Assembly (NCBI GenBank): GCA_016648135.1
Contig: JADDOH010011245.1
Coordinates: forward strand, 1-64,000
Source: Agrypnia vestita
Lineage: Eukaryota > Arthropoda > Insecta > Trichoptera > Phryganeidae
DNA: 64,000 nt
Direction of reading: 5' to 3'
The position numbers were made by a program, and so were the translations under genes. Below the pieces are notes generated by a model. It saw only the letters and a program-made list of their open reading frames with translations. It did not search any database and was not told where the DNA came from. Below, piece after piece: positions 25,403 to 62,398 of the stretch (position 1 is its first letter; each line of letters begins with the position of its first letter).

Positions 25403-27036
25403 ATGAATATTTCTGGGCTTTGGATGTTCTTTTTATTATTGATGACAATAATTGCTACTGTAAGTATGATTCTAAAATACTTAAAAACTATAAAACATTA
25501 ATCTACCAGCTTTCACGATGACGCGCCTAGTCTGAAGATTATTTAAATTGAACGCTTTTTAATCGCTATTTAATAAGATGTCCCCAACTAGCAAGTTTAT
25601 GCACTTTTCAGAGAGCGATTCAGGGACAAGAAGGGTCAGGTGAGCCTCCGTCTGAAGGAATGCCTTGCGGACCTCCTCCCGAGGGGGGACCCAGAGGTCC
25701 TCCACCCGAAGGGGGGCCCAGAGGTCCTCCTCCCGATGGGGGACCCAGAGGTCCTCCGCCTGAAGGGGGACCCAGAGGTCCTCCCCGGAAATGCGGACCC
25801 CCTCCAGAGATTAATAGTAAGTCAAGTAGTCACCCGCACCCAACTGCTGAACACACCGACCGCGTTCAGATAAAAATGTGGCTGTTGATTTGATAAGCGC
25901 GTTATTATATCGCCTGCGCCGCATCGTTGTTTTATAAACCTTACACATTCTTTGTACAAACTGCATTGTTTTCCATTATTTTCACATTATTTTCCACACT
26001 AAGGACAAACACATAAACACTGACCCATAAATTAAGTAAGTATTTATTTACGTAAATAATTAAAATATGGGGGGGAGGCATTTATGGCGGCTTTGTGAAT
26101 TTAAAATAATTAAACAAATAGCCATAAATTCACGTTTCGTACCCGATTTTACAGATGTAATATTACCAAAAATCATTATTTCCTCTTCATCGGTTGGCTG
26201 GTTGTGAAGAAAATACGGCGGTTAGGGAAACAGTTTTCTTTTTAAATATGTACATTGATTTGTAGAAAAATTTTCTATCTAAAAACTTTGACCAGCGTAC
26301 ATATTCGTGTATTCTAAGAGCCGATAGTATGATATATGGCAAGTGTAACAGTTAAGTAAAAAGCATACATTTTTGCGTTTTCTCATATTGCTTAACTTTT
26401 ACCATTACCAACGATCAAACAATGGCACTTGTATTAGGTTGTGGTTTCTTTCTTTCAGACTCATAATGTATTGTGGACTAGCTCTGTAATAAACAAATAA
26501 TAATTTATTTTTTAATAATCTCTACTAAGCGGATTTAAATTCTTCTATAGACATCAAAGAAAATTGATTACATATTAATATATAGTTAAATTAACCTACA
26601 GATTATAGTAACTTCTTACAAAAATACTTAGGGCCTGTTGTTTGATCACAAGTAAGAGTAATGGTTAAGAAAAAAGCATAGATATTTGCATTCTCCACCA
26701 ATCAAATCTATGCTTTTTGCTTAACTCTTACTCTAACTTCTGATCAAACAACGGGCTCTTAATGTGTGTTTAGAAATTTATATAACTATTTATAATAATG
26801 GATAAAAAATTTAGCTAACGTAAACTTAATTGCGTACGAGTATGTGGCACTATATAAAAAAAAAATAATCATATTGCACCACAAATTTATTGCCATCATT
26901 GATTGTGTGAGTATGCATATTGTTCCTACAGACAAACTTAATACAGTTTCGTAGGATGTTTTTAATGTAATAATGATACTGATTTAAATAAAATAAAATA
27001 TTAATTGCAGGTACTCCACCCAGCAGCGACCAGTGA
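25403..27036 (+). CDS. Secreted Gly/Pro-rich peptide with PPPEGGPRG repeats (gene A)
   Basis: Three exons: 25403-25459, 25612-25816 and 27011-27036; intron phases 0 and 1, all GT-AG. 95 residues. Exon 1 is exactly a signal peptide core (MNISGLWMFFLLLMTIIAT). Exon 2 begins RAIQGQEGSGEPPSEGMPCG, then about four 9-residue repeats of the type PPPEGGPRG, then RKCGPPPEIN. Exon 3 adds STPPSSDQ and stop. The two mature cysteines bracket the repeat array, so a disulphide-closed loop is possible. Cationic Arg and anionic Glu alternate in each repeat. Exon 1 is clearly homologous to the exons 1 at 43392 and 53863. I do not recognise the family; a silk-gland, immune or reproductive-tract secretion would fit the composition, but nothing in the sequence decides between them. 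Confidence 0.82.
25817..27010 (+). other. Intron 2 of gene A with MITEs
   Basis: Holds a degraded GGGCC-type relative at about 26340-26440 and the clean copy at 26631-26758. Otherwise AT-rich with no coding sign. Confidence 0.6.
26631..26758. mobile_element. GGGCC-type palindromic MITE, best copy (128 bp)
   Basis: TTA duplication at 26628-26630 and 26759-26761; inverted ends GGGCCTGTTGTTTGATCA / TGATCAAACAACGGGCTC. This copy defines the family's boundaries. The 3-bp TWA target and GGGCC end are Harbinger-like. Confidence 0.88.
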
Positions 27037-27136
27037 CCTCACTCTCAGCCCTGACTAGCAACCTAGTAGAGACCTTCCCAGCCAAGAAGTGACCTCCTCA
27101 ATGGACACCCAGTCGCCTTTACACCAAATTTTTCCT

Positions 27137-27150
27137 AATAAACCAATAAA
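27137..27150 (+). terminator. Polyadenylation signals of gene A
   Basis: AATAAA at 27137-27142 and again at 27145-27150, about 100 bases after the stop codon; a third lies near 27164. Confidence 0.65.
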
Positions 27151-27275
27151 AAAACCTTTGCACAATAAAATACATTGATCAGAATTTTATTTTTTATTAA
27201 AACTTGGGCCAGTCCGCGCATGGCCGAAGAGCACATTACTGCAGTCCCGCGCCTTGTAGAGGATCGCCTGCTGAG

Positions 27276-27988
27276 TAGTGATGGGTCCGCTCTGTACTCA
27301 CTACTACAATTTAGTACTACATTACATTGAAGTACACACTTCGCACGTTTTGAAGTGTAGTGCACACTACAAACTACAAACACCAAAGTTATTGAAAGTA
27401 TATACTTCAAATAGTACACTTCATTTCAAAGCGAACACTACAAAGTACATACACTTCAAAGTTATTGAAAGTATGAGAAACATACTTTAAATAGTGCATT
27501 TTTTACGTGAAATTTTTGGGAAGTTGATGTAGATATATGAAGAAATCTCTGGAAACTGTAACAATCCCCCCCCCCCCATGGTTTGAAAAATTTTGGGACC
27601 CATGAAGAAATTTTTGGGAAGTTGATGTAGCTAAACGAAGAAACCTCTGGAAACTGTAACAACCCCCCCCCCCATAGTTTGAAAAATTTTTGGAATCGAA
27701 GAAATCTGGCTGGCCTTTTTTTTTTTCTTTTAGGACGCCAAATTTTTATTTGGGAAAAAAATTTTTACTTCACTAGTACTACAATTTTGTAGTACAATTA
27801 CATCATTTCATTACTTCACTTCATTAATATTACAATTACTTCATTAATTCACTTCATTTCGTAGTACTACAATTACTTCACTTCAAGTAGTTTTTACTAC
27901 AATTGTAGTGTACACTTTGTAGTCTTCAAATTGGTGAATGTGTGTGTGTTGTAGTCTTCATTTTGAAATGTAGTTTTTCCCTTCGCTA
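27276..27988. mobile_element. Non-autonomous hAT element, 713 bp, with internal tandem duplication
   Basis: Perfect 8-bp target duplication CTGCTGAG (27268-27275, 27989-27996) around TAGTGATGGG / CCCTTCGCTA. About 100 bp is duplicated in tandem inside (27505-27590 and 27606-27690), each unit ending in a C12-13 homopolymer. Subterminal regions are built of ACTACA/AGTACT/CTTCA motifs. It sits about 130 bp past the poly(A) signals of gene A. Confidence 0.9.
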
Positions 27989-28054
27989 CTGCTGAGTCGT
28001 GCAATGAGCGTGTTATCAACAATTCACGAACCTTCATTCACAATTCACACCTAA

Positions 28055-28587
28055 GAGCCGGTTGTATCAACGTGGTTTAAAGTAAAAGTTCGTTTAAAGC
28101 ATAGATTTTACTGAAACGGGTTGTTTGATAGGTGACAGGGCCGCATTGCCCCTATGTGCGAAATGTGCGACGCGCACAGGTGCCAAGGCGGCAAGGGTGC
28201 CGGATGAAATGCCGGCGGTGCCAATTATTGAAATTATTTTAGTTACACAACATATTCTTTACAGTTGAGAATCGAAAAGTAAGTAAGTATCGTTTTATTT
28301 TTCGCAGTAGGTAATTGCCAAGCGGAAGCAAACGGTTTTTACGTATTTAGGTAAATACTATATAAAACTGGAGGACATATTTCAGTCAAAATTTGAAAAT
28401 TTAAAAAAAAATATTCATGTCGAAACACGAAGACAAAAAAAAGAGGCGCTTCATAGGTTTCGCACACAGGCGCGGCCGCGATTCGGCATGGTCCTGATTG
28501 GTGAAGAACGCAAAAATCTATGCTTTAAACTAATATGTATTACCATATAACGAAATATTACTATATACTGAGTTGATGCAACCATAT
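28055..28587. mobile_element. GGGCC-type MITE interrupted by a hAT element
   Basis: Left part from GAGCCGGTTGTATCAACG, right part ending GAGTTGATGCAACC; the two halves are separated by the hAT element at 28136-28496. Joined, the halves correspond to the family hairpin. Confidence 0.78.
28136..28496. mobile_element. Small hAT-like element nested in a MITE
   Basis: 361 bp; ends CAGGGCC / GGTCCTG with target duplication ATAGGTGA (28128-28135) versus ATTGGTGA (28497-28504). The other family members carry ATTGGTGG or similar at this point, confirming the insertion site. Confidence 0.8.
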
Positions 28588-28589
28588 TT

Positions 28590-29660
28590 AATTACATAAA
28601 TTAAACATCAATAATAAAAAACAAATTTTAAAATGCAGTGAGATGAAGTCAGTGCAGAAGAGTATTAAATCTTTATAGGGTACCTATATTCAAATCATCA
28701 AACTGCCGATTTCCATTTTTATGAATTGTTTCGGTGTATGTTAGTACTTTATTAAAGAAAAACGTTTTAAATATTTCTCTTAAAAATTACCCTATTTTTA
28801 GTACTTTATTTAACACATATTAGGGATGTGTATATCCATCGGTACATATACATAGGTAAATAAGTATTTATTGAATAGTGTAGGTTTCATTCCTCATTTC
28901 TGCAAAAGCGCTTTTGCTCCCGAACAGGCTGCGACTTGCTGAAGAAGACTGACAAATTAAACAATTCATTATATTTTTAAATAGTTATTTAATTTGCGAT
29001 TAATAGTAAAAGTAAAAAAGTACAAGCATGTATGGGTCAAAGATCTACAGATACCGCTAAAATTGTCACCATTCGGAACGAACAGGACCTGGACAAACTA
29101 TGACTATATTACTACTACGTTTCCACTACTGCAACGTTTGACATTCTCATATTACCTTTCTACACAATCTCGATAGCAATTTGCTATTGTCTCGTTTATT
29201 TTTACTATTTTATTATTATCTCCATGTCTCTCATTTTTCTTATTACTTTCTCTAGATTGTCCATATTTAATATACTTTTTATTGTCTATCTCCTTATTAA
29301 CTGGCATATTTACGATTTCACATATCTTATACTGGCGATGCACTTGTCATTGAAGCTCGGTAAATGCACCCTGAAAAGATCACTGATTATATCAAACAGT
29401 CTTTTCTATTTTTCTAACTCTATTATATTCATCTCACTAGCTCCACATTATTTATGGCTGTTTCATTAATTAAAAACGAACGAGCTATATTTGAATATAC
29501 CTGCACTTGTCAAATTTACGAAATTTGTTTCTACAGTTCAATACTCATATCTCATTAACAAAGTTGAATGCCTCGCATGCCCAATATCAATTGTGTACTT
29601 TATTTATTCTCATTGATAGTTATTCGAATTTTTATGTCGTTATCTTTCATTTTTAATTAA
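28590..29660. other. Intergenic sequence, nothing recognised
   Basis: AT-rich; short open frames only, none resembling a known protein. Confidence 0.4.
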
Positions 29661-29663
29661 TAG

Positions 29664-30170
29664 ATGTCGACATCTAATAGGTTCACCGCTTATTATCAGA
29701 ACGTGAAAGGTCTACGAACCAAATCAAGTGACTTTTATCGCAATATTTCTATGGCTAATTATGATCTAGTGTGCTTAACTGAAACGTGGTTAACAGATAG
29801 CATAAGCGACGCTGAATTGTTTGATAGTCGTTATTTGGTTTGGCGACGCGACCGTAATTACGAAGAAACTAATCAAAAATACGGTGGAGGTGTCTTAATT
29901 GCGTCACGGATTAATCTAAATGTTTATCCGCAACCATCTGGTCCTCTTCAGCTGAAGATATATGGATTACTATCCACCTGAATAACTCGAATACCCGTAC
30001 TTCTAATAAATTGCATGTATGTGTTCTTTATTTATGTGCACAAAATCAAGGATATTGTTTTTCTAAACAATTGAATAATTTTGTAGAAAAAGTAAGCAAT
30101 ATCTTAACATCCAATCACAAAATTAAAAATGGTCTTGTAAACATCTGTACGCCACAATTGTAGTACACCT
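29664..30170 (+). mobile_element. LINE 5' fragment, apurinic-endonuclease domain
   Basis: MSTSNRFTAYYQNVKGLRTK, YDLVCLTETWL and KYGGGVLIASRIN are the first motifs (N, E of the TETW) of the LINE endonuclease. A frameshift near 29960 is followed by more of the same domain (NKLHVCVLYLCAQN) up to about 30170. No reverse transcriptase follows. Confidence 0.85.
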
Positions 30171-30420
30171 TTGAATGTTCTTTAAGTTTTAAAAATTTAA
30201 AAAAATGTGTTTTCTTTCTAAGACGAGTCATTTAAGTAATCGGAATAATTTGAAAGTATTTATTTTTGGATTTCACATTTAAACAAAAAAATAATATTTG
30301 GTGCTTACACTGCATTTGTGCGATTAATAACAGTTCACTCGGCAAAATCCATTCATCTGTACCTTTTTATGACAAAATCTAATGAAAATATAATACAATC
30401 TCATCATTGCGCACTGGGTT

Positions 30421-31053
30421 TCAACCGGTGGCGGTGTTGTGAAAGCCTTTTCTCTGTTGCGTTGCCGAAGTGGAATTCTTGGTAATTATTATTTTGGTCC
30501 CACTATTCTGCCACTGATCCTCGTTCCTGGCCGTAGAGGTGCCGACGTGTCTGGGGCTCGTCTCCTCGGAGGAGTCCAGAGAGAAGGCCGCATTTCTCTT
30601 CCAGGTCCGCGCGGCCCCGTGGCTGTTGGCGGACCTCAAACTCCTCCCGTTCTCGGTCGGCAGGAGGCCCGAGCTGGCGCGCCGGGCGGTCCGGACGAGG
30701 TCTTCCTCGGAACTAGAACTAGAACCAGAACTGCTAGAGCGGGGCGACGCCGACGCGGAGACATTGGTCGCCCTCTTAGTCCTCAAATCGTCGAATGTGT
30801 TCGGGTGCCGTTGGATATAGTCAATCCCCTCGGCATGATCGACTCTTTTTATGAAGCGTATAGTCGATCTATCTAGCCGAGAATTCTGTAAGAAAACAAT
30901 TATAATCTTAAATCAGAACGCAATAACAAATATAACACATTGAATTAAAATGTGAATGTAGCAAATCCTGAATGAAAAGACTAGAAGACACAGTAGTTGT
31001 ATGGCGGTGGCATGCAGTGGGTATAAACTTAGGGTATTCTGTGACCGACTATA

Positions 31054-31098
<45 letters not shown>

Positions 31099-34000
31099 TA
31101 CCTATATGGGTATTTACATATTTTGTATATACACATAGAGGTACAATGAACTATTCTGAGTAGCTTTAATCCACAAAAATAACTAAAAGAAGTGTTGAAA
31201 ACAAGGATTTTCTAAATAAATAAATATTTTATATGTGCAAAAATTTTCAATATATTTCGAATACGATTTATGTATAATTAAAATGGGAATAATACTAATT
31301 TCAGGTATACGTTTCTTTTCACAAAAATAAATCAAACATTTTATGAAATCATCGATGGCAATGTCGTCGTAAATAAACATTTTAATATTGCGTATAAAAT
31401 GTTCAAAAACCTACATTTTACGAAGTTTCTTAATTACCTTAAACTAATTCATGTAAATAGAAACTGATTGAAATTGTGTGATTGTTGAACTCAGTAATTC
31501 AAAAAAAAAAAAAGTAATCCATAAAAACCAAGTTTTTATTATACTCCCTTTCTCATTTACTAGTAAGTTGTATGAAAAAACCATTCAAAATTTTAAAAAT
31601 CCAAATATTTATTAATTTTTTTAACGAAAATTTGATAGATCTTCTTGATTGTCGCCCCGAGTCTGCTTGCAAAGTTTCAGCTCGATTGGATCACGGGAAA
31701 GGGGTTTAAAATGGATCCAAAATTTTTTCGTCAGACAAGAAGACAAGCAGACGCCACGAGTTAATATAAAGGGAGTAAGAAACAAACTTTTTCAACATAA
31801 TCATTACGACTTAACAGATGGAATTCGCCATAGAAAAGAGAAATAGAATTCACACAAAAGTTTTGGGTGGAATTTGTAAACGATGTCATTTCTGCAAGTG
31901 ACGTGCGCCCAGTTCTCACGTCACATTGGACCTTTCGAAGAAACACGCTATTATATGAAAAATTTACTTGTTCATTACAAAAAACTCGCAGACATAGGGA
32001 TGAGTCAAAATACAGAGTTCAGGACGACTTTTTTCTCGATCTAAGAAACAAATTTGTTGGGCGCAAACGAGTGAGATAAATTATGAATTGACATGAAGTT
32101 GGATACAAAAACGTCGGAAGTAAAACATCTAGCCGTAGGAAGGATTACAGCTAGAATATTAAATCGAATTTTTCTTAATACAATGATTATTTAATTAATA
32201 TTTGTTTCCCAGAATCTTTACTAATGCACAGCTTTTTTGCTTGTATGCGCTGCACGCCACTGCCGTATGGTATGTTAGGGTTGTAAATATTTATTTTACT
32301 GTAAATTTTAGGATTTCATCATCTCCAATAAAAAACTATCGCAATCACCGCCGCAATGATCCCCGATAATTTTTTTTATTTTTTTATTATTATTTTTTTT
32401 TTTTACATCTCAGACCCACAAAACATCACATTGATATTTGTCTGTAGGTGCATCAATACATATATATATATATATATAATATATATATAGATCTATTATA
32501 TATATATATAATATATATATATAAATAAATTGTATTTACCAGAAATACATTCATATTATGAATTACAATAGATCTTATAAACTCAAATACAAATCAACAA
32601 TACAATACAATACAATGCGTAGATGTGTTCAATATTTCAAATTTTTACTAAAAAACTCATTTAGTAAGATTTTTTGTCAGCCAACACGTGAGAGGCCACT
32701 TCATTTGAAACCATTAGGAAGTTATGTAAGAGTGGATTATAGGATACAGGTGTATATAAATCCATTACAAAAATTACAGGAAAACCTTTTCATTATTATT
32801 TAAATATACAATTACTATACACACGCACACGTTGACAACAGCATTACAACGGCGCAGATATTCGCCTATTTTGTCGGTCCATGCCGACGCAATTTAAACA
32901 TTTAAATTATTTGGAATATGTCTATTATGTTTGTATGTTTGCAAGTTTGGATGCAGGAGGTACTTTCCGAACCTACTTATTCGATTTCAAAAATTCTTTC
33001 ACCAATATTTAGAATGGACTTTCAGGGTGGACACAAGTTATATATTATCCCGTTAAAATAAAAGGGCTTTTCGTCGTGACCACAACTAAAGTTGACAAAA
33101 AAATGGTTGAGCAATGCTTTTTTTACGAATTCTGCCTTAACTGTAAGAGATATTTAAATACTTTCATAAAGAAGTTGTAAAACACAAAAAATTCTATAAA
33201 AAAATCCATCTATAATACATCCATCTAAAGACATCTATGATATATCTTGATTGATGATGTCCCCTTGGGGATAAAATACAGTATAGTGTTCTTGAAAATT
33301 TTGGACATACTCAAAATATTCAGAATTAGAGACATTTAAAAATTTTTTTAGCCGTGTCGGAATATTGAATAAGCTATAATTAACCAAGACAAAAGTGACA
33401 TCTAGATCACCGGCTTCAGAAAAACTTAGTGGCATTCTGTCGGACAGTGGCTCATTTTCCAAGTCTTCAATTTGAATGTTTTGTACAATCAACAGTTATT
33501 AAAACAATAAAAATCCGAAAACTTAAATATCTAGGATGTATGATGAGACATCCAGAGAAGTACGAGATCTTGCATCTCATAATGCAGGGAAAGATTGCCG
33601 GAAGTCGGGGCCCTGGAAGAAGGAGGACTTGATGACTGAAGAACTTGAGACAGTGGTTTGGCCAGTCTACTGTGGAGCTGTTCCGGGCCGCAGTAAACAA
33701 AGTCCGCATAGCCAACATGATAGTCAACGGACAGGGCACGAGAAGAAGAAAAAGTACAATCAACCGCGGAAAATCGCTGGTCCAAAATACTCTGCGTAGC
33801 GTTCGGGCGTTTCTAAATTAATTCAATTTTATTCCTGACGGACGAGACTTTTCTAATATAAAAGCTTCTAATGAAGCCCGCCTCACCGCTCATGGCGCTA
33901 ACAGTCAGCGCGAGCATCTGCTTCTAGTTTGGTGTGTTTTTTAATGTAACAATCTACAAATGTAGACTGAAGACACCAACACAACGAAACAATGTGCCCC

Positions 34001-34496: not shown

Positions 34497-34499
34497 TGA

Positions 34500-36140: not shown

Positions 36141-36149
36141 GTAAAAACA

Positions 36150-36280: not shown

Positions 36281-36288
36281 AGTCAATA

Positions 36289-43207: not shown

Positions 43208-43335
43208 CAGGGCCGGACCGGCGCTGCTGCTGCCGCGGGCGAGCGGGGCCGGCGCTAATTTCAGCTGAAGGCTACACTGACAAAGGACTAATAAGCTGGA
43301 AAAACCAATCTGCTGAATAATTGCAGCGAGCGAGC

Positions 43336-43370
43336 TATAAAAGGTGGCGGAGAGCGCCACTCCTCACTTG
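43336..43370 (+). promoter_or_regulatory. TATA box and initiator of the 43392 peptide gene
   Basis: TATAAAAG at 43336-43343 and initiator-like TCACTTG at 43364-43370; predicted 5' UTR about 26 nt. The 75 bp upstream of the TATA (from CACTGACAAAGGAC) is nearly identical to that of the 53863 gene. Confidence 0.72.
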
Positions 43371-43391
43371 TTCCATTTACAGTCGTGCAAG

Positions 43392-46070
43392 ATGAATCTT
43401 TCTGGGCTGTGGATGTTCCTCGTGTTGGTGTTGACTGTGGCTATGGTGAGCCTTTTTTATCAGTTTCTAATTTTAATTTTTTAAGATCCGAATAAAGATA
43501 CGAATAATGGTGCCACATCACTTCGTTATATTTATTTTTAACATGCAAAAATCACCTAATTTGTTAAAATTAGATTATAATGTATACAAGGACTATATTC
43601 CTGTCTTGATTAAGAGTCGAAAATGTTCAAGCAACCATGACCTAATATCAATAGTTGTGGAGATATGCGACATCAAAATTTGCGTTTTTTTTTCAATATT
43701 TCTGACTTATTTTTTGTAAAATGTTGGACTTTCATTACAGTAACTTATATCGATTATGCAAAATTCGTTCCCTTTAATACGAGTCAAATAAAATAATAAA
43801 AAACTTCGAATTCCAATTTGAATTTATGCAGCGTTTTTATCATTTTATTTAACTTGTATCGAAACTAATGAATTTTTCGTAACCCCTGTAAGATACTGTA
43901 ATGATAGTCCAACGTTTTACAAAAAATATGTTAGAAATATTGAAAAATAATGCAAACTTTGATGCCGCATATCTCCATAACTATTGATATTAGGTCATGG
44001 TTGCTTGAACATTTTCGACTCATAATCAAGGCAGTATAGTCCTGCGGGGTTATTAATGTTTTTCAAATAACCCCGTATAATACTAATGTTTATGTATTGC
44101 AGATTTTTAAAGCTACAATTATTGTCTTTGCACAATTTAAATGTTGGTATAGACTAATATAAGTGTACCGCTGACGTTCGTGAGATCGGATATAGAGTAT
44201 TGTGTGTATTGCAGGGAGCCCTGAGCATGCACACTGGAGAACTGAAGGCCGCCCAAGGACCGGGAGGACCGGGAGGACCTGGAGGACCTGGAGGACCTGG
44301 AGGACCTGATCGCGGACCTCCCCCGACCAACAGTGAGTGTTCTCCGCATTTTCACAATATGGTCATTAATATCATTCCCATTATTAATATGACAAAATGA
44401 CGTGCCTCCCAGACCATTTTAATCGAGAAATTAATATTTTAATAAACTAACCCATAAAAACCAAGTTTTTACGATACTCCATTTCGCTTTGAATCAGGTT
44501 TCGTGTGTATACACGCGTCGGGCTAATTACTCATATACAATGATTCCAATTTGAAAAAAACCATTAAAATTTCTAAAAATCCAAAATTATACTATAATTA
44601 TTAATTTTTTTAAAACAAAAATTTGTAAGATCATTTTTATCGTCGCCACGAGTCTGTCAGCAAAATTTCAGCTCAATTTGATCACGGTAAAAGGGTTAAA
44701 AATCGATCCAAAGTTTTATCGGCAGACAATCAAGCAAGCAGATGCTACGAGTTAAAAGAAAGGGAGTAAAAATGTCGTATACTCGATGAAATCCCATACT
44801 TTTCACCATTATTTACTTATAACAGAGTGCATTAAACTACTCCACGACGTTTAAAACATAAAATTGTTTTCTAATAAAGAAGAATCTACAATAAATTTAA
44901 CTACGTAATGCACATAGGTACGTTGAGTTAAATTTATCACAACTATAGCTTCGAGAGAAGCAGTCCCCCTCCTCATCATGTGTAATTTATAACTGCTCCT
45001 GTCAAATCATAGCTATGATAAATTTAACTCAACGTGCGTGCATTGCAAAGTTCAATTTAGTGTAAATCAAAATAATCATGTTGTACCACACAGTAACTGC
45101 CTTGGCAATCAATAAGAATGCGCAACACTATAATGTGAAGACTTTTTACAAAAGTTAAATTTAAATATAATGAAATTAGTTCACCTACAAAATGATAAAA
45201 ATAACGAATTTTTGATGCATCGCTGTCCACATGGTTGTGTAGTGATACCCTCAAAGCTTTGCCTGATTAGTAAATGGATGTTTGAACCTCAAAGCTTCGT
45301 CCATTTCAGTATATTAGATACGTAGTGCGCAGTACACACTTTCTGCGTTTGCGTCTGCATATTCTGAATACAGCAGTATTGGGATGTCAGATCTTTATCC
45401 CAACACTTATATAAAATAGTAGACGAAAATTAAAATAAAAAATAAACAATAAAAAAATAATACATATCGGTATTCGACGTTCATCGTACTTAAATAAGAA
45501 GATTTGTATATTTTCACGTATCACTCTCAAATAAAAACCTTATTTGCGATGTCCGATTTCTCCGGTCTGGTCTGACAGCTGCCCTACGCCGCAAACGTAA
45601 CTTCACAATTATCATGTTTCGACTAAGATTACATGAAATAAGTACTAATGCTTTATATAAAGCTTATATAAAAAAACTATTTCATATGCACTTATTAATT
45701 TCTTCTCCCACAGCGTACTGATGTAAAATTATAGCAAAATTGTCACTGTTGCGCTGGACCACAGAAAAGATAGATATTGTTGGACTGTATTTATATTTGA
45801 CGTTTGACGAATAACCGTCACGTACTTCTTTCTCCCTCTGACCACACCACCGACGTATACCTACGTCTTGCTTATTTTTCATTTTTATTTTCGTCTATCA
45901 AGTGTTGGGATAAACATCTGACATCCCAATATTGCTATTTTTAGAATAGCACACATTGTCCTCTCTATCTCTCTCCCTCGTAGGGCACGATGCAGTTATC
46001 CAAATCTCCACATTAGTTTCATTACTTATTATCCATTATAATTAACATTATTGTTTCAGGTACTCGCTAA
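43392..46070 (+). CDS. Secreted Gly/Pro-rich peptide with GGP repeats (gene B)
   Basis: Exons 43392-43445, 44215-44332 and 46060-46070; intron phases 0 and 1. 60 residues. Exon 1 is a signal peptide (MNLSGLWMFLVLVLTVAM). Exon 2: GALSMHTGELKAAQ, then an uninterrupted run of GPGGPGGPGGP (about five GGP units), then DRGPPPTN; exon 3 supplies Ser-Thr-Arg and stop. The mature peptide is about 40 residues without cysteine, and the collagen- or silk-like tract should be unstructured. Splice acceptors GTGTATTGCAG and ATTGTTTCAG are strong. Paralogue of the 53863 gene, from which it differs mainly in GGP copy number. Function not recognised. Confidence 0.83.
43600..44035. mobile_element. Foldback element in intron 1 of gene B
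   Basis: Arms 43610-43735 and 43905-44030 are inverted copies (GTTCAAGCAACCATGACC / GGTCATGGTTGCTTGAAC, and the ATATTTCT/AGAAATAT part). Absent from intron 1 of the paralogue at 53863. Confidence 0.8.
44449..44770 (+). repeat. ACTCCCTTT repeat family, copy 3, in intron 2 of gene B
   Basis: Begins AACCCATAAAAACCAAG 116 bases after exon 2 and ends AAAGGGAGTA. Not present in the paralogue at 53863, so it arrived after the duplication or was lost there. Confidence 0.75.
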
Positions 46071-46164: not shown

Positions 46165-46170
46165 AATAAA
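46165..46170 (+). terminator. Polyadenylation signal of gene B
   Basis: AATAAA about 95 bases after the stop codon, in a context (CTGAAAATAAAGTTATTG) shared with the paralogue. Confidence 0.7.
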
Positions 46171-51929: not shown

Positions 51930-53335
51930 ATAATAAATTAATCATTAGTTAGCGGTAGATGGAATAGATTGTAAAATAGATGCAACATGGAAAACATCAA
52001 CGGTAATACCAATTCCAAAAATAAAAAATACAAAGCAGTGTGAAGAATTCCGGCCAATAAATACTCTGCCCAAATACGAACAAATACTTGAAGTAATAAT
52101 AAAGGAACAGATTGTAAAATACATTGAATAACATAATATACTATGCGAGAAACAATCGAGATTCCGAGAAGCAAACTCATGCGAAACTGCAATAAACGTA
52201 GTAATCGAAGAACGGAAAACAGAAATAGAAAATAATAATTTTACAATAGCCATTTTCTTAGACTTTAAAAGAGCTTTTGAGACAATAGATAGACATAAAT
52301 TAGATAAATTACAAAAAATAGGATTTTCGCATAGCAGAATATTTAAAAGACCGAAAAGAACAAACTAAAGTAAACGATAAATACTCAGAATGTACAGAAA
52401 ACAATCTAGGAGTGCCACAAGGATCTGTATTAGGCCCTGTACTGTTTATTATATATATATATATATATATAGATATAATATATATATATATCTATATAAT
52501 ATATATAATATATCTTATATATCTCTCTCTCTATAAGTGATATGTGCAAGATATTAAAAAAATGTAAAGTCAGGCTGTTTGCCGACGATACTTTAATATA
52601 CATATCTGGAGAAAACTTGGAAGATTTAGTAAGAATGTTAAATGAAGAATTAATTAATATATCGAATTGGCTTGAAATGAATAAATTAAAATTAAATGCA
52701 AAAAAAACAAAAGGTATGTTAATAGGAAATAAAAGGAATAATGATGAGATAAAGATAGAGATTGATGAAGAAGAAATAGAAATAGTGGATACAATAAAAT
52801 ATTTGGGGATAATTATAGACTCTAAATTATCATTTAAAAAACATGCTGAATACATAACAAAGAAAATTGCAAAGAAAGTATCATTCTTAGGAAGAATAAG
52901 ACCAAAATTAACTAAAGAAACAGCGATAACGATATATAAATCAATATTTGCTCCTCATTTTCAATATTGTCCCACTATTTTGTACCCATGTAATGAAGGA
53001 GATATAAAAAATTACAAATTCAACAGAATAGAGAAATGAGGATAATTCTACAGAGAAATAGATATTCCAAAATTAAAAAGCTGTTATCAGATTTAAATTG
53101 GATTAATATAAAACAAGGATTAAAATTAAATACAATGATATCCATTCACAAAATATTAAACGACAAAATGCCAAAATATTTTAAAAATAAGATCAAATAT
53201 AACACAGAGATACATAGACATAATACAAGAAATGCAAACAAAATAAGTATTCCAAATAGAAAAAAAATAAACACACAAAACTGTATTTACTACAAGGGAA
53301 TAAAGGAGTACAATAGCCTGCCTTATTAAATAATT
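51930..53335 (+). mobile_element. AT-rich LINE with FADD reverse transcriptase
   Basis: WKTSTVIPIPKIKNTKQCEE, then EEFRPINTLPKYEQILE, FLDFKRAFETIDRHKL, then, after a TA microsatellite at 52446-52530, RLFADDTLIYISGENL (catalytic FADD), KYLGIIIDSKLSF, YKSIFAPHFQYC and RHNTRNANKISIPNRK. Frame breaks near 52330, at the microsatellite and in an A-run near 53010. Extremely A-rich coding strand. It has lost its 5' half. Confidence 0.88.
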
Positions 53336-53806
53336 AAATATTATTTATTTAATTATTTAATAATATTATATATATATATATATATTATTTATATAATATG
53401 TGTATAATATTTTTTAATATTAGCTAATGATAAACAATGTATCATTAACTAAATAAAGAATTTTACGGGTTAATCATTAAGTTCACCAAATATTTTAAAG
53501 AACTGCCCGTTCTTCAAATGATTAATTGATTAACAAATTAGAGGCTGTACCCATAACCGCTTCTTTTTTTGCGAGCTCTGTATGAGAGTGGAAATATGTA
53601 CAAGCTATTTCTACTAAATCCATTTTCAAACTGATCAGCGGCATTATGGCGTAGTGCGCGCGCCTGCTGTTTATAAATTTTTTCGCCGCACGTCAAAATG
53701 TCGCAGGTTTTTCGCCGTGCGGCGAAAAATAATGCGCGCCTAGCACACTGACAAAGGACTAATAAGCTGGAAAAACCAATCTGCTAAATAATTGCAGCGA
53801 GCGAGC

Positions 53807-53841
53807 TATAAAAGGTGGCGGAGAGCGCCACTCCTCACTTG
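53807..53841 (+). promoter_or_regulatory. TATA box and initiator of the 53863 peptide gene
   Basis: TATAAAAG at 53807-53814, initiator-like TCACTTG at 53835-53841; the segment 53745-53863 is nearly identical to 43270-43392. Confidence 0.72.
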
Positions 53842-53862
53842 TTCCATTTACAATCGTGCAAG

Positions 53863-55086
53863 ATGAATCTTTCTGGACTGTGGACGTTCCTCGTGTTGGT
53901 GTTGACTGTGGCTATGGTGAGCCATTTTCATTTCATTTTATAATTTTAATTTAAGTTCCAATTAATGGTGCCACTATCAGTTTGTTATATTTATTTTAAT
54001 ATGCAAAAATCGCCTAATCTGTTAAAATCAGATTATATACCACTCAGAATCTTCAAGTTTGTGTTTACTGGGGTATTATGCCGTGTTGTTACGACCTTTC
54101 CATTGCAGGGTCCATCATCAGGGCTGATGTGTTGTTGTGAGTGTTGGTGTTGTGGTTAAGTATCGACTTGCAATACCGTGCCGAAGTCATGACGTGTGGT
54201 ATTGTGCTGTGTGTATGATTCTGGTAACCATAATGGTTACCAGAAGCGACAGATACAACGCGTCATAAGAACGAAGTCTGTTCGCCCTGAAAAACATACA
54301 GAACCTGAGTGAAAAGGCATCGCCTTTCTACCTTTTGTCGAAAGGTCGGAACAACACGGCATAGTACCCCAGTAATCACAAACTTGAAGTATATTCACAC
54401 AGTTTGTGTGGGTGCGGCTTTTAATATTATTAAATACCCGATACGTTCACTTATACAAGATATGTATATAATACTAATGTTTATGTATTACACATGATTT
54501 TTAAAGCTATTATTTCTGTTTTTGTACAATTTAAATGTTGGCATAAACTAATACAAGTGTACCGCTGACTTCCGTGAGATAAATAGTATTGTGTGTATTG
54601 CAGGGAGCCCTGAGCATGCACACTGGAGAACTGAAGGCTGGCCATGGACCAGGAGGACCAGGAGGACCTGGAGGGCCAGGACGCGGACCTCCCCCGACCA
54701 ACAGTAAGTGTTCTCCTCATTTTCACAATATGGTCATTAAGAGGCCCTGGTACACGATTTGCGTATTTGCTCTCGGGCGACCGAATTTAACGTAAACTTA
54801 TTAAATCATTTCAAAACCCATAGCTTAACAAGCTTTTAATCAATTTTATTATAATAGATCCACTCATTCTTAAAGCATTTCCTAAAAAAAATATGAATAA
54901 ATATATTGTTATAACTTCAAATAATTATAACCCCGAAACACTATTTTAGTTTTCGTGCAATAGAGTTATCTTTGGTACACTAAATCTCGTAATATTTTCA
55001 AATAAAGACACCATGCAGTCATCATAATCTCCACATTACACATGGTTTCATTACTCATTAACATTATTATTTCAGGTACCGGCTAA
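53863..55086 (+). CDS. Secreted Gly/Pro-rich peptide with GGP repeats (gene C)
   Basis: Exons 53863-53916, 54604-54703 and 55076-55086; phases 0 and 1. 54 residues. Signal peptide MNLSGLWTFLVLVLTVAM (one residue different from gene B). Exon 2: GALSMHTGELKAGHG, three GGP units, then GRGPPPTN; exon 3 gives Ser-Thr-Gly and stop. Compared with gene B it lacks 18 bp of exon 2, all in the repeat and its edge, and AAQ has become AGH. The introns have diverged far more than the exons and carry different transposons, which suggests the coding sequence is under constraint. Function unknown. Confidence 0.83.
54045..54395. mobile_element. Foldback MITE in intron 1 of gene C
   Basis: CTTCAAGTTTGTGTTTACTG (from 54051) pairs with CAGTAATCACAAACTTGAAG (to about 54390); GCCGTGTTGTTACGACCTTT with AAAGGTCGGAACAACACGGC. 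A perfect 13-bp hairpin TTCTGGTAACCAT / ATGGTTACCAGAA lies in the middle (54219-54245). Confidence 0.8.
54830..55020. repeat. Dispersed repeat shared with 2370-2580
   Basis: Second copy of the repeat with CTTAAAGCATTTC and AGAGTTATCTTTGG, in intron 2 of gene C. Confidence 0.55.
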
Positions 55087-55181
55087 ACCGACGTGGTCGC
55101 GGACTGTGCAGCTCTACAATGACTTTATCCTGATGGATTTTGGCAAATTTGTTATTTACTGTTTATTAAGATTTTTCTGAA

Positions 55182-55187
55182 AATAAA
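55182..55187 (+). terminator. Polyadenylation signal of gene C
   Basis: AATAAA about 96 bases after the stop, same context as gene B. Confidence 0.7.
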
Positions 55188-55439: not shown

Positions 55440-55565
55440 AATGAACTTAAACGTCTGCGACTGTGGTATGAAAAATGGGACTAACTTGCTATTGTGGAAT
55501 GTGGCTCGAACCCGCGGTTACTGGATCACCAGTCAATCGCTAGACCAACATATTTTATTTACGCA
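55440..55565 (-). mobile_element. tRNA-derived SINE in duplication unit 2
   Basis: Box B complement GCTCGAACC at 55504-55512; allelic in position to 48957-49085. Confidence 0.7.
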
Positions 55566-55854
55566 CAAAAAATATTTATAATTCTAGCCTCACCGAGCCA
55601 TGGGTTATAAGGAGACGACCATACTTTGGTCCCATTCTCGATCATTGTTCATCCATGTTTTTATTGCAAAATTGAATTCATTAATTTCTAACCTGTCAAA
55701 CTTACAACGTCAAAATTAGCGGCATTACAATGTCATACAATAACTTTCAAGATACAGGAATACCAATATTGCTTATTTCAGAATATGGCCGAGTGGGTCA
55801 CGTTAAAAGTCGATAATATTTTCTCTGAGGTTTTGGTATTTTTGTCATTTTAAG

Positions 55855-56426
55855 TAGGGATGCATCCGATACCGATACCGATATATCGGAACCAGCGATA
55901 TTAATTTGCCGATACACCGATACATTTTGAATTTCGCACTACAGATAATCCATGTGTAAATGCGCCTCCATCATTATAAAAATTGTGCACAATTTATCTA
56001 CGCTCGAGGAATCCAGCGTTTCATAATTTCATTCATTTCACACAGAATACATGTCGCATCGATATTCTTACTATTCTCAAAAGTCAAAAGCCTATGCTAT
56101 ATGAAAATAGGACTAAATTGCTGTTGTACTGGAATAGAGCTCGAACCACCAATCACCAGATCACTAGGCGAGCGTCATGACCACTACACCAACTAGCTAC
56201 TCATATAATAATCTGAACGTAATTATAATTTTAAAAATTTCATTATAAAGTAAATATTCTAAATAAATATTATACAAGTAATTTCGTCTTTTTCTGATCT
56301 AAACCCACAACTTTTCACACCTTTGGAAATCTTTACTGTCCGCATCGGTATCGATATCGTCGATACTTTTTTATAAATATTGGTATCAGTATCGTATCGG
56401 CAAAAGTGCTTATCGATGCATCCCTA
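55855..56426. mobile_element. Non-autonomous hAT element, 572 bp, containing a SINE
   Basis: Perfect 8-bp duplication ATTTTAAG (55847-55854, 56427-56434); ends TAGGGATGCATCCGATACCG / CGATGCATCCCTA with repeated CGATAC/GTATCG subterminal motifs. A minus-strand tRNA-derived SINE (56085-56200, box B complement 56139-56147) sits inside. Confidence 0.92.
56085..56200 (-). mobile_element. tRNA-derived SINE inside the hAT element
   Basis: Head TTGGTGTAGTGGTCATGACG read leftwards from about 56193 and box B complement GCTCGAACC; closely related to the SINE at 41262-41365. Confidence 0.7.
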
Positions 56427-56439
56427 ATTTTAAGGGGAG

Positions 56440-58440
56440 CTGTTATGGAGTAGATGTGTTATCAAATCATGACGCTTTCCTAATATACCCATTCACAGAT
56501 GTGACACGAATAGTACCTGTGATAGCAAATACATGAATAACGAAGTCCCGCATGAAACATTGTTACAATTATTGCTGGAGATCTAAATATTAATACAATT
56601 ACTAGTTGTCACCACCAAGCACACCAATATTCATGTATGATGGCCGAACATGGACTATCACTAGTGATAAATAAAGCCACACGTCTAGGAAAACTTAGTG
56701 AAAACTGTTTGGACCACATGGATGACAGTATTCCCAAATATCAACTGAATTCATATAATTTTTTAAAGTGCCATAAAAGACAACTATGCTTACACTCCTT
56801 GACGTAAAAAAAAAACTTCTCAATCTAAAACACCTTAGGCCAGAATAAAAATAAAAACGACTGAACTAGAAGACACGAAGACAGAGAAGTGGGAACCAGT
56901 TTGGAGTTCAAATGACCCAAATAAAGCTTCAGAAGAATGTGTCAATACCTTAAAACAATATATGCAAAAAAATACACTCTATGAAAAGTCCATAGATTAC
57001 ATATAACTATTAAAAGTAATGCATAGAGAGATAAGTTGATGTTTAAAAAGGTAAGGAAAGACAAAGGTAACATCCTACTAATAAAATAATACGTGACATC
57101 AAACAGCAATACAATTCAACAAAACTAAATAATGCAGGAAATAATAACAAAGAAATTCGGAAAATCGAAAAAAAATCATTAAAAAAAGTCACAAATTCTA
57201 AGCCGGGATGTAAGTCCGCAATTCTGAACTTAATATAAATAATAAAATCATCACCTTAGAAAGTAAATAGTTATTTTTCAAAAGTGGGGAATGTACTGGC
57301 AGACAATATTTTAAAACGGCTTAATAAAACAACTAGCTATAGAAAACGAAAAACACTCCTTCTACATACGCCTCACAAATTTTAACGAAGTGAGTAAGTC
57401 CATAGATGAACTAAAATAACTTCACTTCAAACTAAAAGCAAGTCCATATATAAACTAAAATAACTGAGCTAATCCCACAGGAATTATATTATTAATCATT
57501 AAAACCATTAAAATAAAATAATAGACCATTCAAAATATACGTATATAAGAAGTTCTACCGATAACACACATTGTAAACACAAACAAAAGGTGGAATATTC
57601 CCCAATAATATGAAACAAGCTATAATAAGACCCATACCTATAAGCGGATGTCCCCTAGACATTAATAATTACAGACCTAGGTAAATCGCTTACAACCGTA
57701 TTTCAGAGCACCGAAATAATCATCAAGATGAGACTCATTTAATCATTAAAATGGAATTCTACCAAGAACTACATGCTTCAAAATTAGAGATTATTACTAA
57801 CATTAAATATAAAAAAAGTAAATACTAAAGTTCTCTATAACAAAAGCGAGACAACCGGTATTTCTCTCAAAACTGGCATCCATACACGTAACTGCCTCAA
57901 CCAATACAAGTGCGAAGAAATCAAGTGCATTGATAAGATTAAATTCTTCGGCATTTGGATTGATCACAATCTAAGATGGGATTCACATATAAAATAACTT
58001 GCTGCTCGATTTAGAAAATTAGTCTATATATGCAAAAACTTACGCAACATCCTAAATAAGGGGTCGTTGAAAATGGTGTACTTCGCCTTATGCCAATCAT
58101 TACTAGGCTATGGAATAATAGGATGCGGCAGTGCCACAATAAATAATCTTTATCAAAGTTCAGAAATCTATCATACGAATCATACCAAAAAAAAAACATT
58201 TTGTCACCTGATAAAGGTACTCTACTCAAAATTCACCGATTTTACTGTAGAATAGCAATTATTTTCTATCACAAAGACTCTTCTTTGCACCACACACCAA
58301 CACACCATTACACCGCTAGAACCACCTCACAAAATAAAATACACGCATTAAGACAAACAGTTTAAAAACGGTATAAATACATATGACAAATTAACTAAAT
58401 TAGAAACCAGATGTACATAAAATAGTAAAATGGAAACAAA
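56440..58440 (+). mobile_element. Degenerate LINE, nearly full-length relic
   Basis: Endonuclease piece GDLNINTITSCHHQAH and NKATRLGKLSENCLDHM (56580-56720), then many-stop RT pieces such as MKQAIIRPIPISGCPLDIN (57610s), and KMVYFALCQSLLGYGIIGCG (58067-58130). Similar lineage to the LINE at 46430-47640. Non-functional. Confidence 0.75.
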
Positions 58441-58451
58441 ATTATATTGAC

Positions 58452-59215
58452 AAATTAGCTGTTCGTACCTGGCGTAGCACTGGTTAAGGATTAAGTTGAA
58501 AATAAATGTGTGGAGGTAAAAAAAGTTTCGATTCGAACGGTATTGATTTGCATCGAAAATATATCAGGGGAGGGGAAAGGGTAAAAAGGGAGGAAGGAAA
58601 TGTCACCTACGTTACACGCCGGGTCCAAAAGAATAAGTTTGCAAATTTTGAGTCCGATACAGATTCAGTCGAACGGTACAGATTTGCATCTAAAATATAT
58701 CAAGGGGAGGGAAAGGGGTTAAATAATAGGGGGAAAATATCGCCTATTGTTACCCAACGAGTTCCAAAAAATAAGTTTCCAAATTTTGAGTCTGATCGGT
58801 CGAACGGTACGAAAATATTTCAGGGGAGGGGAAGGATTAAAATAATAGGGGAGAAATATCGCATATGTTACCCGCCAAGTCCATAAGAATAAATTTCCAA
58901 ATTTTGAGTCCGATCGGGTGTTGTTAAAAGTGTGTAACGGAAGTGTTTCCTAAAAGAATAGGGGGGAAATGTCGCCTATGTTGCAGTTGCCGGCAAACTT
59001 CATGAAATTTTTTGGCGTAGTGGGGGAATGGGTAGAAGACAAAATTTGTGTCTCTTTGGTGGAATGGTACATGCGCAAAACTTCCCCCCCACTACGCCGA
59101 AAAAAATCAAGATGTTTGCCGGCTACTGTGTTCGCCGGGTCCTAAAGCATAAGTATGCAATGTTTGAATCGAATCGGATAAACGGTATAGAATTATATAG
59201 AAAACAGACAGACAG
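58452..59215 (+). repeat. GTTCGTACC repeat family, copy with three internal units and a nested MITE
   Basis: After TTAGCTGTTCGTACCTGG come three units of roughly 130 bp, each with GAACGGTA, ATATCAGGGGAGGGGAA and CCAAATTTTGAGTC. The 145-bp MITE at 58984-59128 interrupts the last part; ends in CAGACAGACAGACAGG. Confidence 0.75.
58984..59128. mobile_element. 145-bp palindromic MITE (CAGTTGCCGGCAAAC), copy 2
   Basis: Nearly identical to 37692-37834, including ATGGTACATGCGCAAA in the centre. Flanks suggest a TGTT or shorter target duplication, not certain. Confidence 0.85.
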
Positions 59216-59234
59216 ACAGGGTTGGTTTGGTAAG

Positions 59235-59637
59235 TTACCTATTTATACCTATAAAACTCAATGTCTGTCTGTTCTCTATATAAATCTACACCGTTTATCC
59301 TATTCGATTGAAATTTTGCACACTTATGCATTAGGACCCGGCGGGTAACATAGGTGACATTTCCTCCCTATTATTTTACCCCTTCCCTTCCCCCTGATAT
59401 ATTATCGATGCAAATCTGTACCGTTTAACCGATCGGACTCAAAATTTGGAAACTAATTGTTTAGGACCCGGCGGGTAACATAGGTGACATTTTCTCCCTC
59501 CCTTTCTATCTTTTCCCCTCCCCTGATATATTTTCGATGCAAATCTATACCTTTCGAATCAAACCTTCGTTTCCCCCCACAACTTTATTTTCAACTTAAT
59601 CCTTAACCCGTGCAACGTCGGGTACGAACAGCTAGTT
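59235..59637 (-). repeat. GTTCGTACC repeat family, inverted copy
   Basis: Reads from ATACCTATAAAACTCAATG to CGGGTACGAACAGCTAG on the opposite strand to the neighbouring copy, with two internal units. Together the two copies form a large imperfect inverted repeat. Confidence 0.75.
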
Positions 59638-59639
59638 GA

Positions 59640-60140
59640 TTAAATAATTTAGTTTGCCATTTTGAAAAAAAAAATATGGAACCTAATGAATAAATTTTAA
59701 CCTAATACCTTTCCATACAAAAATATAATACAAAATGCAAGAGAAGCTATGAGAAAAATTGATGCATTTCGCTCGCATTTCTGGATAATCGCCCTTAAAT
59801 TATAAAAATTCATTTTTAAATCAAGTTTAACGGTACGATCCGATGAAATTTTAAAAATGTGTGAAAATATACTCCGACCTGGATGCTCGGATAACCTGAC
59901 CTCGCTACGTCAAATTTAAAATTTAAAAAAAACATTCCACATCGACGTATAATATATTTCGTTCAGAGCGTTTAAATTCGACTGCGATAATTTTTTAAGT
60001 AATAATTCTATAATTATATTGAACAACTAACACTGATTTAGGTACTTAAATCCTTCCGTTTCCAGCGGAAGTTACTTTTCAGTGTTGCGATAATAAGGCG
60101 TGACGTCAGTGGTCCAAGTTCGCGAATTGTGAGAATCGCG
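59640..60140. other. Region upstream of gene D
   Basis: AT-rich, no transposon ends or coding frame recognised. The last 100 bases become GC-richer towards the promoter. Confidence 0.4.
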
Positions 60141-60146
60141 GAATGG

Positions 60147-60185
60147 ATAAATAGCCGCTCGGCAACCGTAAAAGGCACCCTTGGC
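60147..60185 (+). promoter_or_regulatory. Possible TATA box of gene D
   Basis: ATAAATAG at 60147-60154, about 77 bases before the ATG; a start site near 60180 would fit. Upstream sequence is unlike that of genes A-C. Confidence 0.45.
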
Positions 60186-60223
60186 TTTCGGTGCTAGAAG
60201 AGTAAAGTGGAAGCGAGAACAAA

Positions 60224-62398
60224 ATGAAGTTTCTGGGATCATTTCTGCTGGTGTGGGCCGCCCTCCTGGTCGCCGCTGTGGTGAGAGATTTAGCTATTTA
60301 ACGCGCAAGTCCTGGTACATCACCAAATAATAAAATATATATTTTCGTCTCATACAACTGACGTAATCGCTACAGGAGAAAATAAAATATTATTATAGTA
60401 TAATTGCGCACCCCATGATTGTCAGAAAACAGCAACAGGTAGCGAAATATAATTGACTTTACATCAAACATACATAGCTAGACCGCATTCAAAAGAATGT
60501 CCGCAAAAAATATGTGTGTTGTTACGATGCAAAAAATGAACATAAAAAAGTTTTTCTAGTAAGTAAGTAATTTTTTTTAAACTAAAAAATATATATTTAT
60601 TTGGAATACCATACTGAGGCTTGTAATACGGGCTTGCCAGGCAACTTGCCCCCGCTTTCCTTCTTACCGGACAAAGCTAGGGAACGGTCTTTTGATTGTG
60701 GTCGACCTATAGTAATATATAAGAATAATCACTTAAAGTTTTTCATAACAATCTTTTTGCAAATAATCGCTTTAACTTCTAGTTTCAGTTTTTCAGTTTC
60801 AGTGCCTATAAATCGGCGTTTATTAGCTAAATAACTTTTATAACAGTTTGCATCAAAACATAATTAATGGTAAGAATATTTGCAGAGTTTAAGAATAAGA
60901 TAGCAACAAATACAATATGCATTTTTCGTATGCAGGCCTTAATCGTTACCTACCTCGCTAGGTACGTAAAAATAACTGTTCTGAGGTAAGTAGCCATTCC
61001 ATTCATTTAGACTTCATTTAAATATTTAATTTCATGGTTGCGTTATTAGAAGAATAAAAAGAAAAATAAAATAGAGTAAAGTAAAGTAAACTAGAGTAAA
61101 AAGAATATTCATATATGAACAAACAAAAAGTGTAAATAAATCAATTAATACCAAGGTAGATAGTATTATAACAAAAGTATAGACAGAGTAAGTGTCATTA
61201 ATGAGTGACTATGATCATCGGAGGACCTCTTTCAGGTGTCTTTTACCAATTTTAAAAATAATTATATTAATTCATTATTCAGTCCTCATTTCTCCACAAT
61301 ATGTTCTGCTACTATTACAAGTTTGATACTATTACACCGACTTGTGTCAAGTTTTGTAAAAAAAGTTTATACATACCTACCGAACAAAAAGCTAACCACA
61401 CGGCGAACTATCTTCGTAAACAGTGACGACAATCGGAATATCCAAGAAACTTTGATCTTTAACAAATGAAATGTAGGTACCTACCTACTCAATGTGAGTA
61501 GCCGACATTGTAAATAGAGAATTAATTAATCTAATAATAATCGTAACAATAAACTATGAAGTGATTTTATTCACGAATACGAATAAAACAAAAAAAAAAC
61601 AAGAATGCACAAGGAACCTGTGGCGAGTAAAATATGGTGCAACTTTCCAAACCACAGGACACAAAAACCAAGCTTCAAAAAAATTGTACGAACCCCAGAG
61701 ACACAAAGGTGATAGGTATAAGTTGTCCTACATAATCAACACGTTCAAATAATTTATTTTACCCAAACTTTGGTAGGACTAAATACTTAAAAAACTGCTT
61801 TGTAACTCGTTGCACATCAAAATATAATCTGTTAAACTCTACAAATAATCTACACATTTTGATTGACAATTTGCTTTTATTTGAAATAAAACTCTGTAAT
61901 CTCATTTATGATTATTGAAATAAATTTGATACTTCTTTAATTGAATCCCATTCCCTCCCTCTTCCCAACCCTCCCATTTTATGCATTATCATAATTTAAA
62001 TCTTTGAAATATTTATTATTTGTCACATATTCTATATCATTGTTTTTTACTTAGTTTTTCTTACCAGCTTCGAGGAAACTTCACTGGTCATACTAAACGA
62101 ATATTTTTTTGATATTATATAATTTTTTTATTACAGTGTACTGTATGTTTCCCAAAAATAAAATAAAATAAATTATTAAATGTTTAATTTTGTAATTAAG
62201 CAAGGCTATTTTTATTCTTAAAATAACCTTTCGAAAATATTTCTTGAAACGTACTGATTTATGTTTTCTAGATGAGCGTCCCCCTGGGAACGCACGGTGA
62301 GGGCGGTGGCAGCGGACACGTCCACACTGCCAAGTGCGGGCCTGGTGACAACTTCCCTAACGGCTTCCCCAACGGCTTCCCCAACGGCCCTCCGACAA
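60224..62398 (+). CDS. Secreted Gly-rich peptide with FPNG repeats (gene D), 3' exon not found
   Basis: Exon 1 60224-60280 encodes a signal peptide (MKFLGSFLLVWAALLVAAV), donor GTGAGA, phase 0. Exon 2 62272-62398 (acceptor TTTTCTAG, donor A|GTGAGT, phase 1) encodes MSVPLGTHGEGGGSGHVHTA, then KCGPGD and three FPNG-type repeats ending NGPPT. Exon lengths and both intron phases match genes A-C, and GPPT before the last junction parallels GPPPTN, so I treat it as a divergent member. It has one cysteine and several histidines. By analogy a tiny third exon is expected; none is convincing before 64000. The FPNG and Pro-rich style recalls silk-associated seroins, but the match is too weak to name it. 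Confidence 0.68.
60281..62271 (+). other. Intron 1 of gene D
   Basis: Holds a copy (60505-60690) of the repeat at 22650-22805 and otherwise AT-rich sequence with short uninformative frames. Confidence 0.55.

What the first reader, a model, noticed from the sequence alone, without database searches (positions are those of the whole stretch)
25403..62398. Four-member family of tiny three-exon secreted Gly/Pro-repeat peptides
Genes A-D share one plan: signal peptide alone in exon 1 (18-19 codons, phase 0), low-complexity Gly/Pro repeat in exon 2 (phase 1), a few codons in exon 3. Mature products are only about 35-75 residues and each gene has its own repeat unit (PPPEGGPRG, GGP, GGP, FPNG). The modular layout lets the repeat exon change freely while the secretion signal stays constant. 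I cannot place the family. Seen: exons, phases, repeats. Inferred: secretion, common origin of D with A-C.
Basis: partly seen in the sequence, partly recalled or inferred. Interest (0 to 1): 0.78.

Follow-up and report, generated by a model that had tools for sequence, protein, structure and literature searches.

The report
Tiny secreted Gly/Pro-repeat peptide genes
An insect-like genome stretch carries three clearly related tiny genes, plus a doubtful fourth, that encode short secreted peptides made mostly of glycine and proline repeats; they look like real working genes of an undescribed small family, but nothing here shows what they do.

Summary
The exons, intron phases and repeats are there. 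Genes A, B and C have complete three-exon models with GT..AG introns, TATA boxes and AATAAA signals. B and C are tandem duplicates under selection: 7 synonymous and 4 non-synonymous changes (dN 0.035, dS 0.18), one 18-base in-frame indel, and 2 of 117 promoter bases changed against 45 of 356 in the alignable intron parts. A shares exon 1 with B (0 of 3000 shuffles reach the score) and, more weakly, a GPPP..NST tail across the second junction (p 0.006). D has the same phases, but its leader is no closer to the others than shuffled sequence (p 0.68-0.88), and its third exon, outside the reported interval, is only a candidate. So: three genes of one family; D unproven. No homologue, Pfam family or paper was found in the searches made. 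The peptides are near neutral and probably disordered. Best guess: inducible haemolymph or defence-type peptides; main rival: minor silk or matrix components. The kind is known; the family is a new member.

The parts
25284..25292 (+). kB-like GGGAAAACA upstream of gene A, 39 bases before its TATA box
   Evidence: loose consensus match; weak, found in 8.9% of 3000 random 150-base stretches of the window
25323..25330 (+). TATA box of gene A
25403..25459 (+). gene A exon 1, MNISGLWMFFLLLMTIIAT
25612..25816 (+). gene A exon 2, PPPEGGPRG repeats between two CGPPPE boxes
27011..27036 (+). gene A exon 3, (S)TPPSSDQ-stop
27137..27142 (+). AATAAA of gene A
   Evidence: read from sequence
43275..43391 (+). 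gene B promoter and 5' UTR block shared with C (2 of 117 bases differ); kB-like GGAAAAACC at 43298-43306, TATA at 43336
43392..43445 (+). gene B exon 1, MNLSGLWMFLVLVLTVAM
44215..44332 (+). gene B exon 2, GGP repeats then RGPPPTN
46060..46070 (+). gene B exon 3, (S)TR-stop
46165..46170 (+). AATAAA of gene B
   Evidence: read from sequence
53746..53862 (+). gene C promoter and 5' UTR block; kB-like site 53769-53777, TATA 53807
53863..53916 (+). gene C exon 1, MNLSGLWTFLVLVLTVAM
54604..54703 (+). gene C exon 2, shorter GGP repeat
55076..55086 (+). gene C exon 3, (S)TG-stop
55182..55187 (+). AATAAA of gene C
   Evidence: read from sequence
60224..60280 (+). gene D exon 1, MKFLGSFLLVWAALLVAAV (membership doubtful); ATAAATA at 60147
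62272..62398 (+). gene D exon 2, FPNG repeats
62833..62852 (+). candidate gene D exon 3, (N)VANYF-stop; tentative, the true one may lie beyond the window

Best explanation
Genes A, B and C are a real, small, tandemly duplicated family of TATA-driven genes that each make one tiny secreted peptide. Shown from sequence: three exons with matching phases, a conserved leader, a Gly/Pro repeat that changes length in whole codons between B and C, a GPPP..NST tail, and purifying selection between B and C. Inferred: the leader is removed in the secretory pathway, leaving a near-neutral, disordered or polyproline-like peptide of at most about 36-76 residues that may be N-glycosylated at the NST sequon. 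Most likely role, a guess: an inducible peptide released into haemolymph or onto an epithelial surface as a host-defence-type effector, with compact promoters of about 120 bases that may respond to an NF-kB-like factor. D is a neighbouring gene of the same architecture whose kinship is unproven.
For: Complete models with GT..AG introns. B against C: 7 synonymous and 4 non-synonymous changes; dN 0.035 and dS 0.18 (NG86), 0.040 and 0.13 (YN00); Fisher p 0.009; one 18-base in-frame indel; alignable intron parts differ at 45 of 356 sites while the promoter block differs at 2 of 117. Introns of B and C carry inverted-repeat elements that are not found at the same place in the other copy, while the exons are intact. 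A-B leader 0 of 3000 shuffles; A-B mature alignment ending in GPPP..NST p 0.006. TATA box in A, B and C. kB-like GGRWWWNCM 39 and 38 bases before TATA in A and in B/C, background 8.9% per 150 bases.
Against: The kB-like motif is loose and stood out after looking at 15 motifs; four stricter kB/Dorsal forms gave no match in the 300 bases before any of the four genes; the A-B and A-C promoter alignments are not better than chance (p 0.06-0.21); D lacks the motif. Net charge is -2, +1, +1, -1, unlike classical cationic antimicrobial peptides. No expression data, and no homologue in the searches made.
Confidence: 0.4

Rival explanations
1. The peptides are minor structural or lubricating components of silk, egg glue, cuticle or another extracellular matrix; GPGGP and FPNG repeats act as flexible, elastomer-like spacers.
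For: Low-complexity Gly/Pro repeats. A moth silk study lists a silk-gland-specific 58-residue small peptide, so tiny silk peptides exist (PMC9684489, passages).
Against: At most 36-76 residues, with no Tyr in A-C and no Cys in B and C, so no obvious cross-linking. The forkhead and POU motifs tried were absent within 150 bases of A, B and C, though a forkhead-like match occurs in C further up (-195) and one in D (-77). The listed moth peptide is Gln-rich, not Gly/Pro-rich.
Confidence: 0.3
2. Reproductive (seminal, accessory-gland) or salivary secreted peptides evolving fast by repeat slippage.
For: Small, secreted, tandemly duplicated and repeat-variable, as such genes often are (recalled, not tested).
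Against: No direct evidence either way; B/C show purifying rather than positive selection.
Confidence: 0.2
3. D is an unrelated secreted Gly-rich gene that lies next to the A-C family by chance, so the family has three members here.
For: Leader similarity to A, B, C at or below the shuffle mean (p 0.88, 0.68, 0.70); no DNA similarity of D's exons to A, B or C; different promoter, with a TGACGTCA site; promoter alignment to B at chance (0.26 of other TATA sites, shuffle p 0.40).
Against: Same phases 0 and 1, exon 1 of the same length as in A, GPPT at the exon 2 end, adjacency; mature-region p 0.011 against A and 0.022 against C (0.15 against B), with the candidate exon 3 included; promoter alignment D-A reached by 0.043 of other TATA sites, shuffle p 0.064.
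Confidence: 0.6
4. The reading frames are chance or dead sequence, not genes.
For: None found beyond the absence of homologues.
Against: dN/dS, in-frame indel, conserved promoter and splice sites, A-B leader similarity.
Confidence: 0.04

Closest known systems
Bomanins of Drosophila (PMC4411088, passages read)
   Same: clustered genes for short secreted peptides known from one genus, not similar to known antimicrobial peptides; some have low-complexity tails
   Different: Bomanins are defined by a 16-residue motif with CXXC, absent here; Toll induction not testable here
Insect proline-rich antimicrobial peptides (lebocin, drosocin, apidaecin; recalled)
   Same: short, secreted, Pro-rich; A has PRG units; possible glycosylation
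   Different: those are cationic (recalled); here net charge is -2 to +1, with Gly/Pro repeats
Gloverin and attacin, glycine-rich lepidopteran immune proteins (gloverin: a passage of PMC3224240; attacin recalled)
   Same: secreted, Gly-enriched; gloverin lacks Cys as B and C do
   Different: gloverin is basic and much longer (recalled); no Pfam match here at the curated cut-off
Seroins and a small silk-gland peptide (PMC9684489, passages)
   Same: short secreted proteins; Pro is the top residue of seroin 1 there (12.4%)
   Different: seroins are 103-218 residues there; the small silk-gland peptide is Gln-rich
Unnamed Tenebrio molitor protein P0002, 87 aa
   Same: hydrophobic start plus GPPPEGGPPP-type low complexity
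   Different: E 0.061 only, and no BLASTP alignment to A at E<=100 (low-complexity filtering may play a part): composition, not shown kinship

Membership tests
Family A-B-C itself | shared leader exon MN(I/L)SGLW | tested here: met
   A, B, C yes; D no (p 0.68-0.88)
Family A-B-C itself | intron phases 0 then 1 | tested here: met
   A, B, C complete; D for its two clear exons
Family A-B-C itself | GPPP..NST across the exon 2/3 junction | tested here: met
   A, B, C; D has GPPT only and an uncertain exon 3
Bomanins | 16-residue motif with CXXC | tested here: not met
   Cys counts A 2 (far apart, not CXXC), B 0, C 0, D 1
Bomanins | Toll-induced expression | not testable with these tools
   no expression data
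Proline-rich antimicrobial peptides | strong net positive charge (recalled) | tested here: not met
   -2, +1, +1, -1
Gloverin, attacin or any other Pfam family | Pfam profile match | tested here: not met
   no match at E<=1 for B, C, D (without exon 3); A only PF15240 at E 0.16, 12.7 bits against a cut-off of 30
Silk components (seroins, small silk-gland peptides) | silk-gland-specific expression | not testable with these tools
   no expression data

The most novel reading that the evidence does not exclude
A lineage-restricted effector family in which a fixed promoter, leader and glycosylatable tail form a cassette around a repeat exon that is free to change by whole-codon slippage, so that new low-complexity secreted peptides (PPPEGGPRG, GGP and, if D belongs, FPNG) can arise from one template.
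Probability: 0.25. Interest if true: 0.5.

Novelty: new member of a known kind. Interest (0 to 1): 0.3.

Why it matters
Genes this small and repetitive are easily missed by annotation. If the cassette reading holds, the A-B-C cluster is a compact case for testing how new secreted low-complexity peptides arise while promoter and leader stay fixed. Otherwise it is an ordinary lineage-restricted peptide family.

Tried and rejected
Homologue searches: B residues 1-40 (3 candidates, none with E<=1); D without exon 3 (no candidate); A (2 of 1952 candidates with E<=1: P0001, E 0.012, 48% identity over 63%, with precomputed EF-hand domains, and P0002, E 0.061; both judged compositional); C was not searched. 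Viral contigs with B (208 pattern matches, none confirmed); PDB with D without exon 3 (none); Pfam; Rfam on the window at gathering scores (0 matches). Papers: ten searches were answered, in open-licence PubMed Central only. The four that held peptide strings (14, 18, 37, 51) gave 0 papers; the other six gave general immunity, antimicrobial-peptide, silk or unrelated papers in the listings seen. Five papers were opened by 'find' only, so passages, not whole texts: PMC1559613, PMC3224240, PMC9684489, PMC4386667, PMC4411088. Not borne out: a shared A-B promoter (p 0.06-0.21); strict kB sites (none); D as proven family member; further copies in the window (blastn with nine probes found none beyond A, B, C, D at E<=0.05 apart from short scattered matches). 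A sigma-70/terminator scan of the B promoter is a bacterial test and carries no weight. Structure prediction was not run, because the peptides are low-complexity and have no alignment. One search used coordinates off by one base for exon 3 of B and C and both D exons; one search corrected them. The promoter Fisher test was run with 3 differing sites although the same call counted 2, so its p of 0.001 is conservative.
Full report
What was checked. The finding claims four genes of one plan between 25403 and 62398. I read the regions, rebuilt the gene models and compared the genes with each other.

Gene models. A, B and C each have three exons with GT..AG introns, first intron phase 0, second intron phase 1, a TATA box 80 (A) or 56 (B, C) bases before the ATG and an AATAAA after the stop. 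The predicted proteins are 95, 60 and 54 residues. D has two clear exons with the same phases; its third exon is not in the stated interval. A candidate at 62833-62852 gives GPPTNVANYF-stop, but one search listed ten other acceptors with pyrimidine-rich tracts and two AG|GT candidates, and the real exon may lie past the window end.

More than chance. The Gly/Pro repeats are tandem arrays; stretches of at least 50% Gly+Pro over 30 codons were found for A, B and C (not D) and in none of 10 block-shuffled windows. B and C are duplicates: exon 1 matches at 52 of 54 bases and exon 2 at 93 of 100 aligned bases, with one 18-base gap, while the alignable intron parts differ at 45 of 356 sites (the rest of the introns gave no long alignment). 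Of 11 coding changes 7 are synonymous and 4 not; dN 0.035 and dS 0.18 (NG86), 0.040 and 0.13 (YN00), Fisher p 0.009. The 117 bases before the ATG differ at only 2 sites. This pattern says that both the protein and the promoter are probably under selection. Upstream of that block the similarity stops, so what is needed for expression may be that compact; this is inference. Introns of B (43601-44034, 45360-45948) and C (54051-54389) hold inverted-repeat elements, and the exons are untouched.

Kinship of A. A's exon-1 protein aligns with B's at score 65, against a shuffle mean of 21 (0 of 3000 shuffles reach it); 31 bases from just before the ATG are 90% identical to B (E 1.7e-6) and 84% to C (E 5e-4). 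The mature parts of A and B align with p 0.006 under composition-preserving shuffles, ending in GPPP(E/T)..NST, where the sequon spans the second splice junction. The NST sequon in A is followed by Pro, which disfavours glycosylation (recalled).

Kinship of D. The exon-1 protein of D scores no better than shuffles against A, B or C (p 0.88, 0.68, 0.70). The mature part, with the candidate exon 3, gives p 0.011 (A), 0.15 (B) and 0.022 (C), mostly Gly/Pro matching; in the alignments with B and C the candidate exon supplies one matching residue. No DNA similarity of D's exons to the others was found. D's promoter block resembles A's slightly (0.043 of other TATA sites do as well, shuffle p 0.064) and B's not beyond chance (0.26, 0.40). 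Same phases and position are the only other links. The count 'four-member family' should read 'three, possibly four'.

Promoters. A loose kB-like motif lies 39 bases before the TATA box in A and 38 in B and C; 8.9% of random 150-base stretches of the window have one. Stricter kB forms are absent, the A-B promoter alignment is not significant, and I looked at 15 motifs. This is a lead only. D has a perfect TGACGTCA, found in 0.3% of random 150-base stretches, also one of the 15 motifs.

Function. After exon 1 the peptides are near neutral (net -2, +1, +1, -1), 15-34% Pro and 23-36% Gly, so probably disordered. I favour a secreted inducible defence-type peptide at about 0.4, with a structural secretion product at 0.3 and a reproductive or salivary product at 0.2; sequence alone cannot decide. 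No homologue or curated family match was found. The protein database does hold at least some insect proteins (P0002 is named Tenebrio molitor), but its insect coverage is unknown, so absence there is weak evidence of novelty.

Setting. The minus strand of about 1-14 kb holds exons of a kinase whose best solved relatives are DMPK, MRCK and ROCK (two exons near 11.5-11.9 kb); with the coiled-coil exons that follow I take it for citron kinase (recalled; an exon at 13707-13985 is assigned from recall alone and has no Pfam match). A mariner transposase frame lies at 407-1447 and LINE-type pieces at 29664-29981 (endonuclease) and 52542-53039 (reverse transcriptase). Species and order were not established.

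Noticed in passing
window 34133-34068 and 30885-30421, minus strand: Putative two-exon secreted precursor between A and B: leader MDRGSRGRAVSLLLLLCVGGIQ, then a 154-residue Ser-rich part with several KR/RR dibasic sites; no Pfam match for the second exon. The splice pairing is my reading.
   Followed up: partly
window about 1-14000, minus strand: Exons of a DMPK/MRCK/ROCK-type kinase with coiled-coil exons, probably citron kinase (name recalled).
   Followed up: partly
window 407-1447, plus strand: Mariner (Mos1-type) transposase frame of 346 codons with HTH_48 and Transposase_1 matches.
   Followed up: partly
window 43601-44034, 45360-45948, 54051-54389: Inverted-repeat (fold-back or MITE-like) elements inside the introns of B and C; sequence like the first also appears near 1790-1860 (read by eye).
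   Followed up: partly
window 60101-60108: Perfect palindromic TGACGTCA 123 bases before the ATG of D.
   Followed up: no
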